From the NCBI RefSeq assembly GCF_031656915.1, contig NZ_CP134227.1, forward strand, positions 1,488,001 through 1,552,000: DNA of 64,000 nt, given 5' to 3'. Source of the stretch: Nocardioides marmorisolisilvae. Its GTDB lineage: Bacteria; Actinomycetota; Actinomycetes; Propionibacteriales; Nocardioidaceae. Shown piece after piece: positions 9,804-16,135 of this stretch (position 1 is the first letter of the stretch; every line of letters begins with the position of its first letter). The position numbers and the translations under genes are program-made. Under the pieces are notes generated by a model, which was not told where the DNA came from, did no database searches, and saw only the letters and a list, made by a program, of their open reading frames with translations.

Positions 9804-11144
9804 TTGATCCTGCTGCACGGGCTGGGTGGCGCCAAGGACCTCCCGGTCCCCGCCCCCCTCGCCATCGCGGGTGGAACGGCGGCGCTGGTGGTCTCCTTCT
9901 GCGTGTTGGCGCTGGCCTGGCGACAGCCGCGGTACGACGCCGCGCACCAGGGCCGTCCCCTCCCATCCCTGCTCGCGGCGGTCCTCGACGGTCGACCGTT
10001 CGCGTGGCTGCTGCGGGTGCTCGGACTGCTCTTCTTCGGCTGGTCCACCTGGGCGCTGGTCTCCGGGCCGGACAACAACAACAATCCCGCGCTCGGCGTG
10101 TTCTACGTCCTGGTGTGGGTGGGCGTCGTGCCGGCCTCGCTGCTGTTCGGCAGGGTCGCGCGCGCCGTGAGCCCGGTGCGGACGATCAACCTGGCACTGG
10201 CGAGACTCCGGGGGGTCGACCCCGGCGCCGGTCTCTACGCATACCCGGCGCGGCTCGGCCAGTGGCCAGCAGCCATCGGGCTGTTCGCCTTCGTGTGGCA
10301 GGAGCTGGCCAACCCCGACCAGGTGGCGCTCGGCTCGATCCGCCTCTGGCTCGCGGTCTACGTCGCCGTCATGCTCATCGGCGCGGCTCTCTTCGGCGAC
10401 GTCTGGCTCGAGCGGGCCGACCCGTTCGAGGTCTACTCCGACCTGCTGGCGCACCTCTCGGTGTGGGGCCGGCTGCCGGTGCAGCCCGGACCGAACGGAC
10501 GGCCGGGCCGGCTCGTCGTACGGACTCCGCTGTCGAACCTCGACGCACTGGTGCCCCGGCCGGGGACCGTCGCGGTGGTCGCCGTGCTGTTCGGCTCGAC
10601 GGCGTACGACTCCTACAAGGACACGCTGCGCTGGGTGAACTTCATCGAGGGGCTCGGGGTCAACAGCGAGCTGCTCAACACCGCGGCACTGCTGGGCTTC
10701 TGCCTGGTCGTCGGGATCACCTTCACGATTGCCGCGCGGTGCACGGCGGTCGGGGACCGGATCGCGCACCGCGCGCTTCCCCGGGTCTTCGCCCATGCCG
10801 TGGTGCCGATCATCGTGGGCTACATGACTGCGCACTACCTGAGCTACTTTGTCTCCCAGGGCCAACAGACCCTCACCTTCCTCAGCGACCCGCTGGTGCG
10901 TGGCGACGACTACCTGGGCACGGCGGGCCTGAGCCCGAACCTGTGGCTCAACTTCCACCCGACCCTGCTGGCCTCCGTGAAGGTTGCCGCCGTCGTGCTG
11001 GGACATGTCGTCGGTGCGGTCGCGGCCCACGACCGGGCGATGAGGCTGTTGCCCGCGCGGCACCAGGTCACCGGTCAGCTCGGGATGCTCGTGGTGATGA
11101 CCTGCTACACCGCGACGGGGCTCTACCTGCTGTTCGGCATCTGA
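9804..11144 (+). CDS. Polytopic membrane protein, partner of the His-rich lipoprotein
   Basis: Integral membrane protein of 446 aa with about ten predicted helices, for example GGTAALVVSFCVLALAW, AIGLFAFVWQEL, LAVYVAVMLIGAALFG, LGFCLVVGITFTIAA and the final LGMLVVMTCYTATGLYLLF. The initiator is probably TTG 9804, immediately after the lipoprotein stop, giving MILLHGLGGAKDLPVP. I do not recognise a named family or a transport signature. Because it is placed directly behind the cupredoxin-like lipoprotein, a role in metal or oxidant handling at the membrane is a guess. Its last 22 bp overlap the end of the converging broken ATPase gene. Confidence 0.7.
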   Translation: MILLHGLGGAKDLPVPAPLAIAGGTAALVVSFCVLALAWRQPRYDAAHQGRPLPSLLAAVLDGRPFAWLLRVLGLLFFGWSTWALVSGPDNNNNPALGVFYVLVWVGVVPASLLFGRVARAVSPVRTINLALARLRGVDPGAGLYAYPARLGQWPAAIGLFAFVWQELANPDQVALGSIRLWLAVYVAVMLIGAALFGDVWLERADPFEVYSDLLAHLSVWGRLPVQPGPNGRPGRLVVRTPLSNLDALVPRPGTVAVVAVLFGSTAYDSYKDTLRWVNFIEGLGVNSELLNTAALLGFCLVVGITFTIAARCTAVGDRIAHRALPRVFAHAVVPIIVGYMTAHYLSYFVSQGQQTLTFLSDPLVRGDDYLGTAGLSPNLWLNFHPTLLASVKVAAVVLGHVVGAVAAHDRAMRLLPARHQVTGQLGMLVVMTCYTATGLYLLFGI

Positions 11145-11498
11145 GCGGGCCGACCTTCCGGCAGAGCCACCCGGCACAGGTCGGCCACGGCCGTGCGCAG
11201 GGCCGAGTCGCCGGACTCGGTCAGGCTCCGACCCGCCACGATCGCCCGGTCCACCGCGGTCCGGTCCTCGGGCAGGAAGTGCACGGGGACGCCCGGAGCG
11301 TAGCCCTCGACCATGCCGACGATGTCCTGGCGCCGCCAGCCCAGGGAGGCGCGCATCCGGTTGACCACGACCTGGACCGGCGTACCGGGCGCGAGCTCGC
11401 CGAGGTCGACCAGTGCCCGGGCGAGCCGCGCCAGGCCGGTGGGCTCCGCCGACCCGACCAGAACCACCTCGTCCGCCGCTGCAATCGCCTCCAATGTG
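11123..11498 (-). pseudogene. C-terminal fragment of IS-disrupted CpaE/Ssd-like ATPase gene
   Basis: Continuation of the reading frame of the ATPase fragment at 12935-13781, cut off by the insertion sequence. It encodes EAIAAADEVVLVGSAEPTGL onward, about 124 residues, ending MPNSR. This is the second half of the ParA-like fold (the NRMRASLGW strand-helix region). It has no promoter or ribosome site of its own beyond an accidental TTG at 11494, so it is unlikely to be made. Joining it to the N-terminal part through one copy of the 8-bp repeat gives an uninterrupted 404-codon gene. Confidence 0.9.
11491..11498. repeat. Left target-site duplication of the ISL3-family element
   Basis: CCAATGTG, identical to positions 12935-12942 at the other end of the element. 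Eight bases is the usual duplication for ISL3-family insertions. Identity of both copies suggests recent insertion. Confidence 0.93.
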
Positions 11499-11523
11499 GG
11501 CCCTCCTGACTGATCTGTGGGTT
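11499..11523 (+). repeat. Left terminal inverted repeat of the IS
   Basis: Starts GGCCCTCCTGAC and contains CTGTGGGT near its inner end; pairs with 12910-12934. Mismatches to the other end are at repeat positions 4, 13, 14 and 16, and 25 lies outside. The transposase stop codon (TAA on the minus strand) begins inside its inner edge. Confidence 0.9.
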
Positions 11524-12820
11524 AGTTGCGGCCCGGGAGGGCGGGTCGGTGCCCGCCGAGGGTGAGCATCGCCAGCGCGATCAATGCCTCGGCGGAGTGG
11601 AACCCGAACGCCATCCTGGTCAGCAGCCGGATCTTGGTGTTGGTCGACTCGATCAGCCCGTTGGACAGGTTGTGCTCGATCGCGGCGAGGATCCGGGAAC
11701 GGTGCTTGACGATGCTCTTCTGCAGTTTCACGAACGCCGGGATCCGGCAGCGTCGCGCCCAGCTGATCCACCGGTCCAGGGCCTCGGCGGCTGCCGCGTG
11801 GGGTAGTCGGAAGACCAGCCGCAGGCCTTCTTTGAGCAGATAGGCGCGATACAACCGCGGATCGGTGGCCGCGATCCAAGCCAGCTTGGTCTGCTGGTTC
11901 TCGGTGAGATCTTCGGGGTTCTTCCACAACGAGTAGCGGGCTCCCTTCAACGACTTGGCCCGTTCGCTGCCCGGTCGCGGCGGTGCGTCGGCGCGAGGAC
12001 GTCCACGCGGCCGCTTGGGTTCGGTTCTGGCCTGCTTGCGGGCGTCGTTCCACGCCTCACGCCGGACCTCATCGAGCGCCTCGGTCGCCCATTTGACGAT
12101 GTGGAACGGATCGGCCACCCGGACCGCGTTCGGGCACCGCCCGGCGACGATGGTGTCGATGAAGTCGGCCCCATCAGCCGAGACGTGGGTGATCAGCTTG
12201 CAGCGTTCTTCGCCGAGGAGATCGAAGAACTCAGCGACGGTGGCGCTGTTGCGTCCCGGTGCGGCCCAGACCAGTCGCCGCTGGTCGTGGTCGACGACGA
12301 CCATCAAGTACTTGTGCCCGCGCTTGTAGCTGATCTCGTCGATCCCGATGCGCCGCAGCCCGGCGAAGCGGTCGTGCTGGGTCTCGATGTCGGCCCAGAC
12401 CCGGGAGATGATCGAACCCACGGTGCGCCAGGCGATCCGCATCAGCTCGACCACGCATGACTTCGAGGCCTGGGTGGCCAGCCATGCCACCTGATCATCG
12501 AAGCTCAGCGTGTGGCCGGCGTCGTGGCGGGCCCAGGGCACGTGGGCGACCACCACGCCATGGGCCCGGCAGGTCACCCGCGGCGCGTCAGCCTCGACCA
12601 TCGCGACCATCGTGCCCAGGTCCAGCGCCCGCCAACGCCTCCTGCCCGCACCGGCGTCATAACCCGGACAGCGTCGCCGACAACGCCCGCAGCGGCCACG
12701 CTGCCGCTTGGTCGGCCGCACGTAGGCGACCAGCACCTGGTCGTCCTCGTCGAACTCGACCCGCTCGATCACCGTCTTCTCGACCCCGAACACGCCCCGC
12801 CATAGGCTGACATCACGCAC
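11522..12820 (-). CDS. ISL3-family transposase
   Basis: DDE transposase of 432 aa. N-terminal zinc-finger-like region has CGRCRRRCPGYD (about residues 43-54); the catalytic core shows RRIGIDEISYKRGHKYLMVV (first Asp), VSADGADFIDTI (second Asp) and SNGLIESTNTKIRLLTRMAF (the Glu), spaced as in ISL3 enzymes. Full length without frameshift, so probably active. The GTG at 12820 has AGGAG six bases upstream. Codon use is GC-rich like the host, so the element is adapted to high-GC actinobacteria. Confidence 0.95.
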   Translation of the reverse strand: MRDVSLWRGVFGVEKTVIERVEFDEDDQVLVAYVRPTKRQRGRCGRCRRRCPGYDAGAGRRRWRALDLGTMVAMVEADAPRVTCRAHGVVVAHVPWARHDAGHTLSFDDQVAWLATQASKSCVVELMRIAWRTVGSIISRVWADIETQHDRFAGLRRIGIDEISYKRGHKYLMVVVDHDQRRLVWAAPGRNSATVAEFFDLLGEERCKLITHVSADGADFIDTIVAGRCPNAVRVADPFHIVKWATEALDEVRREAWNDARKQARTEPKRPRGRPRADAPPRPGSERAKSLKGARYSLWKNPEDLTENQQTKLAWIAATDPRLYRAYLLKEGLRLVFRLPHAAAAEALDRWISWARRCRIPAFVKLQKSIVKHRSRILAAIEHNLSNGLIESTNTKIRLLTRMAFGFHSAEALIALAMLTLGGHRPALPGRN

Positions 12821-12909
12821 GCCGCTCTCCTGTGCACCTGGTTCCTGTTCCTAGACAGCTCAGAAACCTAGACAGGAAGCGGCGTGTGGCTCGTTCAGGC
12901 GCGCTCAGG

Positions 12910-12934
12910 CACCCACAGGTACGTCAGGAGAGCC
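12910..12934 (-). repeat. Right terminal inverted repeat of the IS
   Basis: Read on the minus strand it starts GGCTCTCCTGAC and continues to CTGTGGGT, matching the left end at 20 of 24 positions. It is directly followed by the right copy of the target duplication. Confidence 0.9.
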
Positions 12935-12942
12935 CCAATGTG
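12935..12942. repeat. Right target-site duplication
   Basis: CCAATGTG, identical to 11491-11498; see that entry. Deleting one copy together with the element restores the interrupted reading frame. Confidence 0.93.
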
Positions 12943-13781
12943 GTGGTGTTGCGACCCATCGCACCGGGGCCCGCCAGCCCATCGGTCTCGACGCTGAACC
13001 CGCAGTCGACCACGACGTCGGCCTGCTCGGCAGCGAGCGCAAGCACCTCATCGACGACGCCGGGACGGACCTCGATCCACCGGTCCGGCCGCGGCAGGCC
13101 CGTCACCACGTCCAGACACTCCGCCACCCGACGACGGCAGTGGGCGAAGGAGCTCACCACGAGCGCACCCTCGTTGACGAGTCGGGCGCACGCGAGCAGC
13201 CCGGACACCTCGTCGAGCACACCGAGGTGCTGCGCGACCGCTCCGCCGTACGGATCGGCGTCGACCAGCACGGTCGCCCTTCCCGCAGCCGCGTGCTCGG
13301 CTGCCAGTCCGACCGCCACCGTGGTCCGGCCCGGCGCACCGGTCGCGCCCCAGACCGTGACCACCCGACCGCGCGAGCCCGGCATCGCCGTCGGCTCCGG
13401 CGCCGCTGCAGGCGCAGCAGTCGCCAGCAGGCTCTCGACGGCGTCGGCGACATGGGCCGGCTCCGTGACGGCGCTGATCCCGAGCCGGGCCAGTCGCTCC
13501 AGCTGGGCAGAGTCTCCCGTGGTGGCCACGGCGAGGATGCGGACGTCGTCCTGACGCAGCCGGCGTACAGCGTCGGCGTCGAGACCCGGCAGCCCACCGG
13601 CCACGACCGCGACATCGGCTCGACCCGACGACGTCGCGGCGAGCAGGTCTGCCAGATCGACACACCGGCGCAGCACCACCATGCCCGCGGCGGCCAGCCC
13701 GCCCAACACCTCCGGCTCCCACTCGGCGCGGCCGGCGGCGAGCAGCACGCAGGGTCGCGGCCCGGCATGGGCGCCCACCAC
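12935..13781 (-). pseudogene. N-terminal fragment of IS-disrupted CpaE/Ssd-like ATPase gene
   Basis: Encodes about 281 native residues, then runs four codons into the element and stops at 12924. Residues 1-110 look like a receiver-type pseudo-domain, followed by a ParA/MinD-like P-loop domain with GATGAPGRTT at about residue 145 (a deviant Walker A with Arg in place of the second Lys) and VLVDADPYGGAVAQHLGVL as the Walker A' partner strand. This architecture is that of CpaE/TadZ and the actinobacterial Ssd proteins, which place Flp-pilus or septum machinery. The gene directly upstream codes for a CpaB-like SAF protein, supporting a pilus-type pair. Starts are GTG 13781 or 13778. The fragment could still be translated but lacks the last ~120 residues. 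Confidence 0.88.
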
Positions 13782-13784
13782 GGC

Positions 13785-14432
13785 TCAGCCCCTCCTGGTC
13801 AGCACGAGGCGACCCGAGGCCGCCCGGCCCAAGGCGCGGCCGAGCCGATCAGCGGTGCCGGCGGGGACGGAGACGATGACCTGGCGAGTGGACTGGGGCG
13901 CGAGCGCGTCACCTTGGCCACCCAGCGCCAGCACCGAGACGTCCTCCAGCACCAGGCGGGCGTCGGGCGCCCCACCGACGGTGCCGGCGGCCTTCTCGGG
14001 CACCACCCATACGTCGACGACCGAGCCGGCCCGGACGGTGCCGGGGATGTCGTCACGCGCGACGCTCAGCGGCACCTCGATCCCGGGATCGGCGGATGCG
14101 GTCTGCAGCGCGGCGCGCGGCAGCAGCTCGCCGGCGCTCAGCGGACGGGAGAGCGTGGCGCCCGCGGGAGGCGGCTGGTCGGCCCGGACGTAGCGTCCGG
14201 CGAGTCCCTGGTCGGAGAACCTGACGCGACGTGTGTCGAGGTCGCCGGCCTTGACCTCGGCCCCTGCCGGGAGGCTGCGACGCACCACGACCATCGCGAC
14301 GCTGTCGTCCGCCGAGGACAGCAGCCAGCCGCCAAGCAGCACACACGCGGCCATGACGGCGACGCCGATCACCAGGCGCGGATCGCGCCATCTCAGGACG
14401 TGGGCGCGGGTGGCCGCAGGAGTGCTGCTCAT
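13785..14432 (-). CDS. SAF-domain membrane protein, CpaB/RcpC-like
   Basis: Membrane-anchored protein of 215 aa: cytoplasmic N-terminus, one transmembrane helix (LVIGVAVMAACVLLGGWLL, about residues 18-37), then a SAF domain beginning VVRRSLPAGAEVKAGDLD and continuing to an extracellular beta-rich part (VPLSVARDDIPGTVRAGSVVDVW). CpaB/RcpC proteins of this type sit in the periplasmic or wall part of Flp pilus systems. ATG 14432 is preceded by GGAAGG. The next gene downstream is the broken CpaE-like ATPase, three bases away. No secretin, prepilin or CpaF gene is in the window, so this is an orphan pair or a remnant. Confidence 0.8.
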   Translation of the reverse strand: MSSTPAATRAHVLRWRDPRLVIGVAVMAACVLLGGWLLSSADDSVAMVVVRRSLPAGAEVKAGDLDTRRVRFSDQGLAGRYVRADQPPPAGATLSRPLSAGELLPRAALQTASADPGIEVPLSVARDDIPGTVRAGSVVDVWVVPEKAAGTVGGAPDARLVLEDVSVLALGGQGDALAPQSTRQVIVSVPAGTADRLGRALGRAASGRLVLTRRG

Positions 14433-14527
14433 CGGGTTCCTTCCCAGAGATGCGTCAAACGGACTTTCCACAGGCATCGGGCCCTGAACGTTCGCAACCA
14501 CGCCGAATCGGTGGCACAGTGGCTGCC

Positions 14528-14788
14528 GTGACTTCGAACCCCGACGCACCCCGCCAGGGCCGCCGGTTCCTCCAGCTGGCCGACGTTGCCGAGGTGCTCA
14601 ACATCTCCGGCTCGCAGGCCTACGCCCTGGTCCGTCGCGGTGACATCCGTGCGGTGAAGATCGGCGGACGTGGGCAGTGGCGCGTCGAGGCCACCGAGCT
14701 CGAGGCCTATATCGAGCGGCTCTACACCGAGTCCGAGCGGTTCGTGGTCGAGCATCCGTTCGCCGACGAGGTCGACGCGGACCTCTGA
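14528..14788 (+). CDS. Helix-turn-helix DNA-binding protein, BldC/excisionase type
   Basis: Small DNA-binding protein of 86 aa with a MerR/AlpA-like winged helix: FLQLADVAEVLNISGSQAYA as the HTH, then LVRRGDIRAVKIGGRGQWRV (the wing) and ELEAYIERLYTESERF. Proteins of this length and motif order are annotated as excisionase-family or BldC-like regulators in actinobacteria; phage excisionase activity is unlikely because no integrase is near. GTG 14528 is preferred, giving MTSNPDAPRQGRR; an upstream ATG at 14450 in frame would include the divergent gene's leader. It is divergent from the SAF gene (95-bp gap), which it could control. Confidence 0.8.
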   Translation: MTSNPDAPRQGRRFLQLADVAEVLNISGSQAYALVRRGDIRAVKIGGRGQWRVEATELEAYIERLYTESERFVVEHPFADEVDADL

Positions 14789-14796
14789 GCACGCGC

Positions 14797-15342
14797 TCAC
14801 CGGCGTACCCGCACCGCGGCGACCGCCGCAAAGGGCACGGCGCTGCCACCCCCAGACCCCTCGAGCACGAAGAAGTCTGAGCCGACACGACCCGGCCGGC
14901 CCTCCATCCGATCCCCGTCCACCAGGTGCACCACGCACCCAGCCGCATCGTCGCCGAGCCGCCGCAGCGCTGAGCGCATCGACAACCTGGCCAGCGCAGG
15001 GCGGGCGACCTCGTCGACGACCCGAGCCGACAGCCCGTCGACGGCGAGCAGCGCAGGCACGCACACCAGCCAGCGCGCACGTGTCTCGCCGAGGATGCAG
15101 AAATCGGATCCCACCCGCTCGAGCTCGCCGCGCACGCGCAGTCCGTGAGGCAACCGGACGCTCAGGACCTGGCCCACGGATCCGTGCAGTCGCCCCAGCA
15201 GGTCCACCGCGGCGTACTCCGCGACACCCAGCTCGGCGACCGCCTCGTCACGCTCGGAGAGCTGCATCCCCTGGGCCTGCTGCTCGAGGTCCTCGAAGAC
15301 CTCCTGCAGCCGGTCGTCGTTGGTCGGGCCCTGGTCGCGCAT
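14797..15342 (-). CDS. Conserved hypothetical protein
   Basis: Soluble protein of 181 aa, N-terminal acidic helix (DRLQEVFEDLEQQAQGMQLS) followed by two similar beta-rich units, VLSVRLPHGLRVRGELERVG SDFCILGE and VVHLVDGDRMEGRPGRVG SDFFVLEG, separated by a helix. The repeated 'RVGSDFxxL' suggests an internally duplicated small barrel. No catalytic residues are evident. Not recognised beyond a Nocardioides-type hypothetical. It ends 9 bases from the HTH gene in convergent orientation, and it is divergent from the LysM gene. Confidence 0.7.
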   Translation of the reverse strand: MRDQGPTNDDRLQEVFEDLEQQAQGMQLSERDEAVAELGVAEYAAVDLLGRLHGSVGQVLSVRLPHGLRVRGELERVGSDFCILGETRARWLVCVPALLAVDGLSARVVDEVARPALARLSMRSALRRLGDDAAGCVVHLVDGDRMEGRPGRVGSDFFVLEGSGGGSAVPFAAVAAVRVRR

Positions 15343-15403
15343 GGCGGCTACCTTCCCCGCAGGGCTGTCCGCTAAACACATTCGACCGCGCCCAGCTGTG
15401 GAC

Positions 15404-15441
15404 AACCGGTTGACAGCGATTGCTATCGCGCCTTTTATAAG
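15404..15441 (+). promoter_or_regulatory. Candidate promoter and operator of the LysM gene
   Basis: TTGACA at 15410-15415 and TATAAG at 15436-15441 resemble sigma-70-type boxes, with a long 20-bp spacer (TTTTAT at 15433 would give 17). The spacer contains the inverted repeat GCGAT-TGCT-ATCGC (15416-15429), and the palindrome AACCGGTT overlaps the -35 box (15404-15411). An AT-rich -10 in this GC-rich window is notable. The LysM gene starts 29 bp downstream. Operator function is inferred. Confidence 0.5.
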
Positions 15442-15469
15442 GCAAACACAAGCAAACGCAGGGGTCGAC

Positions 15470-16135
15470 ATGGTTCTCGGGGAACCCTCCATCGGACGCG
15501 CCACGCTCGCGGTGACCGCCACCGGCGTGCTCATGGGCGCGGCCACCGTGCTGCTGGCGCATTCGCTGGTCCCCGCTGCTCCATTGCCGGACTTCGGAGC
15601 CGCCCTGACCCTGCTCGCCACGTGGGCGTTGCTGGCGTCGCTGGGCTGGGCCGTACTGGTGTCCGCGGCGGTCCTCCTCCAGGCGCTCACGGGCCAGCGC
15701 CTCCTGGTGCGGATCTGCTGCCCCGCGGCCTGGCGACGTCCGGTGCTCGTGCTCTGCGGGGCCGCGCTGGTGAGCGGTGTCGCCGGTCCGAGCGTCGCGG
15801 CCGGGGGAAGCGGCACGTCCCCCGTCGACGGACCGCGCACAGCCGGTCTCCCCCGGCTGGACCGCCCGGCCGGCGGACCGGCTCCTGCAGCCCCGAGTCG
15901 TGGACAGGACGCGCAGGTCCGGGTCCGCCCCGGCGACTCGCTGTGGCGCATCGTCGCGCGCCGGAACCCGCACGCCACCGCCGACGTGGTCGACGCGCAG
16001 GTGCGCCGGCTCTACCAGGCGAACCGCGGGGCCATCGGGCCCGACCCCGACCTGATCCAGCCAGGAACGCTGCTCCAGCCCATCCAGCCCATCCAGCCCA
16101 TCCACCCCACCGACGACGACAGGACCGAGCCATGA
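15470..16135 (+). CDS. LysM-domain membrane protein
   Basis: Protein of 221 aa with three hydrophobic segments in the first half (LAVTATGVLMGAATVLLAHS, ALTLLATWALLASLGWAVLV, VLVLCGAALVSGVAG) and a C-terminal LysM domain, VRVRPGDSLWRIVARR to LIQPGTLL, for binding peptidoglycan outside the cell. The order places LysM in the wall next to a membrane anchor. C-terminus contains QPIQPIQPIHP encoded by three 9-bp repeats. ATG 15470 follows AGGGG; an open frame upstream is not needed. Stop overlaps the next start by ATGA. In actinobacteria a LysM protein and an Rv3235-type protein often sit upstream of secA, as here. Confidence 0.85.
   Translation: MVLGEPSIGRATLAVTATGVLMGAATVLLAHSLVPAAPLPDFGAALTLLATWALLASLGWAVLVSAAVLLQALTGQRLLVRICCPAAWRRPVLVLCGAALVSGVAGPSVAAGGSGTSPVDGPRTAGLPRLDRPAGGPAPAAPSRGQDAQVRVRPGDSLWRIVARRNPHATADVVDAQVRRLYQANRGAIGPDPDLIQPGTLLQPIQPIQPIHPTDDDRTEP
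16075..16101 (+). repeat. Three tandem 9-bp repeats within the LysM gene
   Basis: CCAGCCCAT repeated three times exactly, then a degenerate copy. In frame it adds QPI units to the protein's tail, so copy-number change would lengthen the tail without a frameshift. Confidence 0.8.

What the first reader, a model, noticed from the sequence alone, without database searches (positions are those of the whole stretch)
11123..13781. Exact IS insertion that breaks a CpaE/Ssd-like ATPase and can be undone on paper
A complete ISL3-family element with 20/24 matching ends and an identical 8-bp duplication (CCAATGTG) splits the gene. Deleting the element and one repeat copy gives 1,215 bp, a 404-codon frame reading GRNTTTLEAIAAADEV across the join. 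The perfect repeats and open frame imply recent insertion, so this strain has probably just lost this function.
Basis: seen in the sequence. Interest (0 to 1): 0.7.

Follow-up and report, generated by a model that had tools for sequence, protein, structure and literature searches.

The report
Jumping gene breaks pilus-positioning gene
A recently jumped piece of DNA has cut a gene in what looks like a soil actinobacterium, and that gene may be half of a split pilus machine of a kind used for DNA uptake in a relative, so the strain may be a natural mutant for it.

Summary
An ISL3-family element (window 11499-12934, 1,436 bp, ends matching 20/24, 8-bp repeat CCAATGTG) splits a gene. The two halves, searched apart, each match 15 of 15 intact same-genus orthologues fetched, with the predicted junction residues. 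It looks recent: 8 identical copies in the genome, none found in 23 other genus genomes. The host is Nocardioides-like.

'Ssd-like ATPase' is only partly right. A full-scoring Ssd lies elsewhere in the genome; this gene belongs to a separate CpaE-like family whose P-loop lysine is arginine. It is the last gene of a LysM / unknown / HTH / CpaB(SAF) / CpaE cassette beside secA, present in 17 of 24 genus genomes and absent in 7. A tad pilus locus about 34 kb away, with no cpaB or cpaE of its own, is found in 16 of those 17 and 0 of the 7. The layout matches a Micrococcus luteus locus needed for natural transformation.

Best reading: the element knocked out the CpaE of a split Tad pilus (about 0.7, inferred), perhaps a competence pilus (about 0.4).

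The parts
11499..12934 (-). ISL3-family insertion sequence, 1,436 bp, transposase on the - strand
11522..12820 (-). ISL3 transposase, 432 aa (Zn ribbon, HTH, DDE domains)
11491..11498 (.). target-site repeat CCAATGTG, left copy
12935..12942 (.). target-site repeat CCAATGTG, right copy
12943..13781 (-). N-terminal half of the broken CpaE-like gene (receiver-like domain and first half of the MinD-like domain)
11123..11490 (-). C-terminal half of the broken CpaE-like gene, frame open
13785..14432 (-). CpaB/RcpC-like SAF-type gene; start judged from orthologues, the long ORF runs to 14549. Pfam RcpC and NCBIfam CpaB matches are below their cut-offs
14450..14788 (+). HTH_17 / excisionase-type DNA-binding protein, divergent from the CpaB-CpaE pair
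14797..15333 (-). cassette gene of unknown family (no Pfam match)
15320..16135 (+). cassette gene with a weak LysM match (16.6 bits, below the cut-off of 20.9)
9804..11144 (+). convergent gene (no Pfam match; membrane protein by its look) that borders the cassette; its 3' end overlaps the broken gene by 22 bp

Best explanation
An ISL3-family element recently transposed into, and almost certainly inactivated, a chromosomal gene for a CpaE-like (receiver-like plus MinD-like) protein. Shown: the insertion, the intact orthologues, and that the break lies before the last three core strands of the modelled MinD-like fold. Shown as a pattern: the gene belongs to a five-gene cassette beside secA, and that cassette is present or absent together with one particular tad pilus locus that lacks its own cpaB and cpaE. 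Inferred: cassette and locus are two halves of one Tad pilus machine, with CpaE positioning it in the cell, so the insertion disables or misplaces that pilus. More weakly inferred, from the same gene layout in Micrococcus luteus: the pilus serves DNA uptake, and this strain is a natural mutant for competence. The broken gene is the last in its direction and its neighbour is convergent, so no polar effect is expected.
For: Element and junction. Recency. Cassette: CpaE, SAF and HTH orthologues each in the same 17 of 24 genus genomes; same order of five genes in 15 of 15 relatives fetched; in the 7 others, secA and the far neighbours are kept and none of the five genes gives a hit in the stretches fetched. 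Pilus link: the tad locus at G000:C1 about 1461.1-1465.2 kb (L145:9120-13195) holds no cpaE, cpaB or SAF gene that the queries could find; it is in 16 of 17 cassette-positive and 0 of 7 cassette-negative genomes (Fisher p 2.3e-5, genomes taken as independent), whereas another tad class is in 12 of 17 and 7 of 7. In G003 the two lie 1.4 Mb apart on one contig and are still both present. Fold: orthologue model pLDDT 88.6, MinD-like ATPase FlhG first by Foldseek. Competence: PMC8467076, section 24 part 1 and passages read; PMC4322843, outline with abstract and passages read.
Against: The co-occurrence rests on few independent events: only 2 independent pairs, both concordant, sign test p 0.5. One exception, G013, has the cassette but no such tad locus; its assembly has about 240 contigs. 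In G010 the tadA of that locus is found in two pieces about 20 kb apart although its cassette genes are present and its cpaE-like frame is whole, so there 'present' does not mean working. ComEC is kept in 6 of 7 cassette-negative genomes. No M. luteus sequence was compared here; the phenotypes I saw in that paper concern the SAF and HTH genes, none its CpaE gene, and deleting the SAF gene raised com promoter activity while lowering transformation. PMC4322843 states that M. luteus lacks a TadZ orthologue, against the later paper. The third operon gene named there, a PAS kinase, has no counterpart here. The arginine in the P-loop leaves the biochemical role open. The SAF gene's CpaB and RcpC matches are below cut-off.
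Confidence: 0.7

Rival explanations
1. The gene is an ordinary Ssd septum-site protein, and the strain has lost septum-site control.
For: TIGR03815 matches the N half at 35 bits, and 30 of 33 intact relatives at E up to 0.001.
Against: The scores shown (35.1 and 45.4 bits) are far under the cut-off of 154; at E up to 0.001 the model also rings in 14 of 14 control genomes (over the cut-off in 1), so weak hits say little; a full-scoring Ssd (298 bits) sits beside tadA, T2SSF and TadE genes in the same genome; 7 of 24 genus genomes lack this gene.
Confidence: 0.05
2. The cassette is a self-contained regulator of the cell envelope or of transcription (HTH plus LysM plus SAF), and its link to the tad locus is shared ancestry of a few lineages, not function.
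For: Only 2 independent pairs; the G013 exception; the M. luteus HTH gene could not be deleted, and its authors suggest it may serve more than one process.
Against: Where both are on one contig they lie about 27-68 kb apart in 9 genomes and 1.4 Mb apart in G003, and secA with the far neighbours of the cassette is kept in the 7 negatives, so the two losses look like separate deletions that coincide; CpaE and CpaB are pilus-type proteins; another tad class shows no such link.
Confidence: 0.2
3. The interrupted gene still works: the two fragments are both made and reassemble, or the C fragment is coupled to the transposase stop 28 bp upstream.
For: Both frames are open; the C part has a TTG start at 11494.
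Against: By alignment the break lies in or beside a helix of the MinD-like core (residues 281-288 of the modelled orthologue) and separates it from three core strands.
Confidence: 0.04

Closest known systems
ISL3 family of insertion sequences (nearest match in the plasmid collection: Frondihabitans sp. PAMC 28766, 70.7% identity over the full length)
   Same: Transposase domains, imperfect inverted ends, 8-bp target repeats
   Different: All 23 matching plasmid records are in the 60-80% identity band, and no phage record matched; eight identical copies here, two of them in tandem
Micrococcus luteus locus Mlut_14660 / 14650 / 14640 (PMC8467076)
   Same: HTH_17 gene divergent from an RcpC/CpaB SAF gene followed by a CpaE gene, away from the tad clusters
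   Different: No PAS kinase gene here; a LysM-type and an unknown gene belong to the block here; sequence orthology not tested
CpaE/TadZ proteins of Tad pili
   Same: Receiver-like N domain plus MinD-like C domain
   Different: P-loop lysine replaced by arginine (mostly GAPGR[TS]); gene not inside a tad locus
Actinobacterial Ssd (TIGR03815)
   Same: Distant homology over the MinD-like part
   Different: Scores well below cut-off; a full-scoring Ssd is elsewhere in the genome

Membership tests
ISL3 insertion sequences | ISL3 DDE transposase with Zn ribbon and HTH | tested here: met
ISL3 insertion sequences | Imperfect terminal inverted repeats and 8-bp target duplication (family feature recalled) | tested here: met
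   20/24 ends; 7 of 8 copies with identical 8-bp flanks; the eighth is half of a tandem pair
ISL3 insertion sequences | Transposition activity | not testable with these tools
   8 identical copies suggest recent activity
CpaE/TadZ | Receiver-like domain fused to a MinD/ParA-like domain | tested here: met
   Model of the intact orthologue at L040, pLDDT 88.6: MinD-like part hits FlhG, MinD and Soj; the N domain is called receiver-like from its five alternating strands and helices (my reading) and from 3fkq (rank 31, 410 columns, but rmsd 18.3)
CpaE/TadZ | Canonical P-loop lysine (not kept by all CpaE/TadZ proteins, recalled) | tested here: not met
   R154 invariant in 33 of 33; arginine in the window gene and 15 of 15 genus orthologues; GR in 52 of 54 named ORFs, the other 2 missed by the pattern but covered
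CpaE/TadZ | Encoded in or with a tad locus | tested here: inconclusive
   Not adjacent; co-occurs with a cpaE-less tad locus in 16 of 17 versus 0 of 7
Ssd (TIGR03815) | Score over the curated cut-off of 154.45 bits | tested here: not met
   35.1 bits for the N half, 45.4 for the intact orthologue at L040
M. luteus competence locus Mlut_14660/50/40 | HTH_17 divergent from SAF/CpaB then CpaE | tested here: met
   layout of the M. luteus locus from PMC8467076
M. luteus competence locus Mlut_14660/50/40 | Sequence orthology with the M. luteus genes | not tested
   No M. luteus sequence was fetched; of 13 Agromyces loci (recalled to be in the same order), 12 show all three genes and 12 show secA
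M. luteus competence locus Mlut_14660/50/40 | PAS kinase gene in the same operon (the paper gives its locus tag in two ways) | tested here: not met
   The downstream neighbour is a convergent gene without a Pfam match
M. luteus competence locus Mlut_14660/50/40 | Needed for natural transformation | not testable with these tools
   Experiment only

The most novel reading that the evidence does not exclude
A secA-linked CpaB-CpaE cassette, with an arginine P-loop CpaE, is the missing half of a split competence-type Tad pilus in actinobacteria. Both halves are lost together, repeatedly, within one genus, and this genome is caught at the first step of such a loss: the genes of its tad locus show no break and only the CpaE is freshly cut.
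Probability: 0.4. Interest if true: 0.65.

Novelty: new member of a known kind. Interest (0 to 1): 0.45.

Why it matters
An element landing in a gene is ordinary. The gene is of more interest: the pattern ties an orphan CpaB-CpaE pair, whose direct role in pilus formation the M. luteus authors say still needs to be verified (PMC8467076, passage), to one definite tad locus, and offers a natural knock-out plus seven natural double absences for testing what the pair does.

Tried and rejected
Rejected: Ssd identity. Rejected as unneeded: re-acquisition of the cassette by G012 to explain its deep position in the first cassette tree; holding the genus together is not rejected (p-AU 0.589), and the tad-locus tree places G012 with G008 (SH-aLRT 92, not starred), as the species markers allow. 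G008 groups with G015 and G005 in the cassette tree (97), unlike in the species tree; this was not resolved. No source found for the element: plasmid matches are at most 70.7% identical in the rows listed, and no phage record matched. Led nowhere: the promoter and terminator scan (0 sites); paper searches on ISL3 in Nocardioides and on ISL3 target sites (listings only); the 2026 M. luteus paper PMC12849477, in which the locus tags I searched for do not occur (two passages); the Ssd paper PMC3095998, in which Walker, CpaE and TadZ do not occur (passages). The C-half query was translated out of frame (it started at 11490), and its hits are not used; one search repeats it in frame. That the 7 absent genomes form one clade is rejected (p-AU 4e-9).

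Full report
OBSERVATION. The window (G000:C1:1488001-1552000, one contig of 4.23 Mb) holds an ISL3-family element at 11499-12934, 1,436 bp, ends matching 20 of 24, flanked by CCAATGTG on both sides. The transposase carries three ISL3 domains above Pfam cut-off and passes NCBIfam's ISL3 model. Instead of joining the flanks I translated the halves apart: the N half ends GRNT, the C half begins AIAAADEV, and 15 of 15 intact same-genus orthologues fetched (L115-L129) run through the gap of four codons with matching residues; both halves hit all 15. A 16th relative with the gene (G001, on a contig end) was left out.

HOST. The nearest named records are Nocardioides and other Nocardioidaceae (records of this very genome may be left out there). 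That such bacteria live in soil and are not pathogens is recalled.

RECENCY. Eight full copies in the genome are identical over 1,436 bp. Seven of the eight have identical 8-bp repeats; the eighth is half of a tandem pair in which, as I read it, the second insertion used a target that includes the last base of the first element. No copy was found in 23 other genus genomes at E up to 1e-50 (16 candidates scored per genome). Two further copies in this genome are 91% identical, one partial. The eight target sites are 66% A+T against 30% for the window. Neither half of the gene has a stop, and the branch of its cassette is of ordinary length (0.39, median 0.41). Gene conversion could also keep copies identical, and no sister strain was available, so 'recent' is well supported but not dated.

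WHAT THE GENE IS. It is CpaE-like, not Ssd. The Ssd model TIGR03815 gives 35 bits (cut-off 154), and 45 bits for the intact orthologue at L040, while a full-scoring Ssd (298 bits) lies at 2.63 Mb beside tadA, T2SSF and TadE genes with open frames. A model of the L040 orthologue (33 sequences, pLDDT 88.6) shows an N domain of five alternating strands and helices, which I read as receiver-like, and a MinD-like C domain; Foldseek ranks the MinD-like ATPase FlhG first, with MinD and Soj close by, and finds the two-domain 3fkq (TadZ, by recall) at rank 31 with a large rmsd of 18.3. The P-loop reads mostly GxxGAPGR[TS]: the usual lysine is arginine in 33 of 33 aligned relatives and in the window gene and 15 of 15 genus orthologues. 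By alignment the insertion falls in or beside a helix (281-288) before three core strands (292-298, 323-330, 351-358), so the N fragment lacks much of the nucleotide-binding core.

THE CASSETTE. The gene is the last of five: weak LysM protein, unknown protein, HTH_17 protein, CpaB/SAF-type protein (matches below cut-off), CpaE. The CpaE, SAF and HTH orthologues are each found in the same 17 of 24 genus genomes; the other two genes were looked for only in the stretches fetched. In the 15 relatives fetched, all five genes are in the same order (in L125 with about 2.4 kb extra after the HTH gene); the membrane-gene neighbour is seen in 12 of 15, and secA in 14 of 15 (the contig of L126 begins too late). 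In the 7 others the far neighbours follow secA, with a DUF6459-type hit between them in 3 of 7, and none of the five genes gives a hit at E up to 1e-3. Among 62 loci of named genomes, 56 have the HTH-SAF-CpaE trio; three of the six misses start at or near a locus end (L057, L081, L084), one lacks a SAF hit (L097) and two are distant hits (L099, L100). secA lies within reach in 17 of 62, among them 12 of 13 Agromyces loci.

THE PILUS LINK. Scanning the genus for T2SSF proteins and for the TadA of one tad locus shows that this locus, next to prfB in 11 of 15 relatives fetched, is in 16 of 17 cassette-positive genomes (15 by TadA, G001 by TadC, flp, TadE and TadF-like genes only) and in 0 of 7 negatives. 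G013 is the exception. In G010 its tadA is in two pieces about 20 kb apart, so that copy is itself interrupted. In this genome the locus reads tadA, tadB, tadC, a flp-like gene, tadE and a tadF-like gene without a break that I could see; Pfam supports T2SSE, two T2SSF and TadE, the flp-like and tadF-like names rest on position. Queries with the cassette's SAF, HTH and CpaE halves, with Ssd, and with the genome's other CpaE and CpaB-like proteins found nothing at E up to 1e-4 in the 16 stretches that hold this locus (L153, L154 and L160 show only part of it). The tad class that in this genome has its own CpaE occurs in 12 of 17 positives and 7 of 7 negatives (sorted by me, counted), and a tad locus of the Ssd class is seen in all 7 negatives (an Ssd hit itself in 6 of the 7 short stretches). 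Fisher's p is 2.3e-5 but treats genomes as independent; on the tree (G001 not included) there are only 2 independent pairs, both concordant, sign test p 0.5. The 7 absences are not one clade; with no regain, I count at least three joint losses on that tree (G007; G020; the other five), which is my reading of a partly unresolved tree. The free minimum is 2 changes for the cassette and 3 for the tad locus, the third being G013. Cassette and locus lie about 27-68 kb apart in 9 genomes with both on one contig (about 34 kb here) and 1.4 Mb apart in G003.

THE COMPETENCE LINK. PMC8467076 (section 24 part 1 and passages read) describes in Micrococcus luteus an HTH_17 gene divergent from an RcpC/CpaB SAF gene and a CpaE gene; deleting the SAF gene cuts transformation 10^4-fold (while com promoter activity rises in rich medium), and its direct role in pili is said to need verification. 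PMC4322843 (outline with abstract, and passages) shows that both tad clusters of M. luteus are needed for Flp pili and transformation; it also states that M. luteus lacks a TadZ orthologue, against the later paper. The layout is the same here; sequence orthology and function were not tested. The ComEC domain lies in an open frame in this genome and is found in 23 of 24, including 6 of 7 cassette-negative genomes, which neither proves nor excludes a competence role.

VERDICT. Insertion and gene loss: close to certain. Split Tad pilus: about 0.7. Competence: about 0.4. I found no paper stating the link between the orphan pair and a particular tad locus in the searches (listings seen; of the papers listed, only PMC3095998, PMC8467076, PMC4322843 and PMC12849477 were opened); the library lacks most subscription journals.

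Noticed in passing
L139:12726-15604 (G000:C1:948725-951603): Two identical copies of the element in tandem, 7 bp apart; the flanks fit two successive insertions, the second using the last base of the first element as part of its target.
   Followed up: partly
L142:2529-5427: Another copy of the element appears to interrupt a gene whose first part matches SIR2_2 (PF13289), near an SMC/AAA_23-type ATPase: possibly a broken defence gene.
   Followed up: partly
L139, L140, L141, L142: Six of the 8 copies lie in these four regions, with integrase-like, IstA/IstB-like or SMC-like ATPase genes nearby (gene types partly judged by eye); the window copy sits in a gene with conserved synteny.
   Followed up: partly
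target repeats of the 8 copies: Target sites are A+T-rich (66% against 30% for the window) in a G+C-rich genome.
   Followed up: no
G010:C6:314560-335812 (partly in L148): In this relative the tadA of the cpaE-less tad locus is found in two pieces about 20 kb apart, as if a large insert had split it; its near twin G009 has one piece.
   Followed up: no
L117 / G013: Only genus genome with the cassette but without the cpaE-less tad locus; assembly gap or true intermediate.
   Followed up: no
window 14797-15333: Conserved cassette gene with no Pfam match.
   Followed up: no
G000:C1:1013685-1014672 and 1021400-1022835: Relatives of the element at 91% identity, one of them partial.
   Followed up: no
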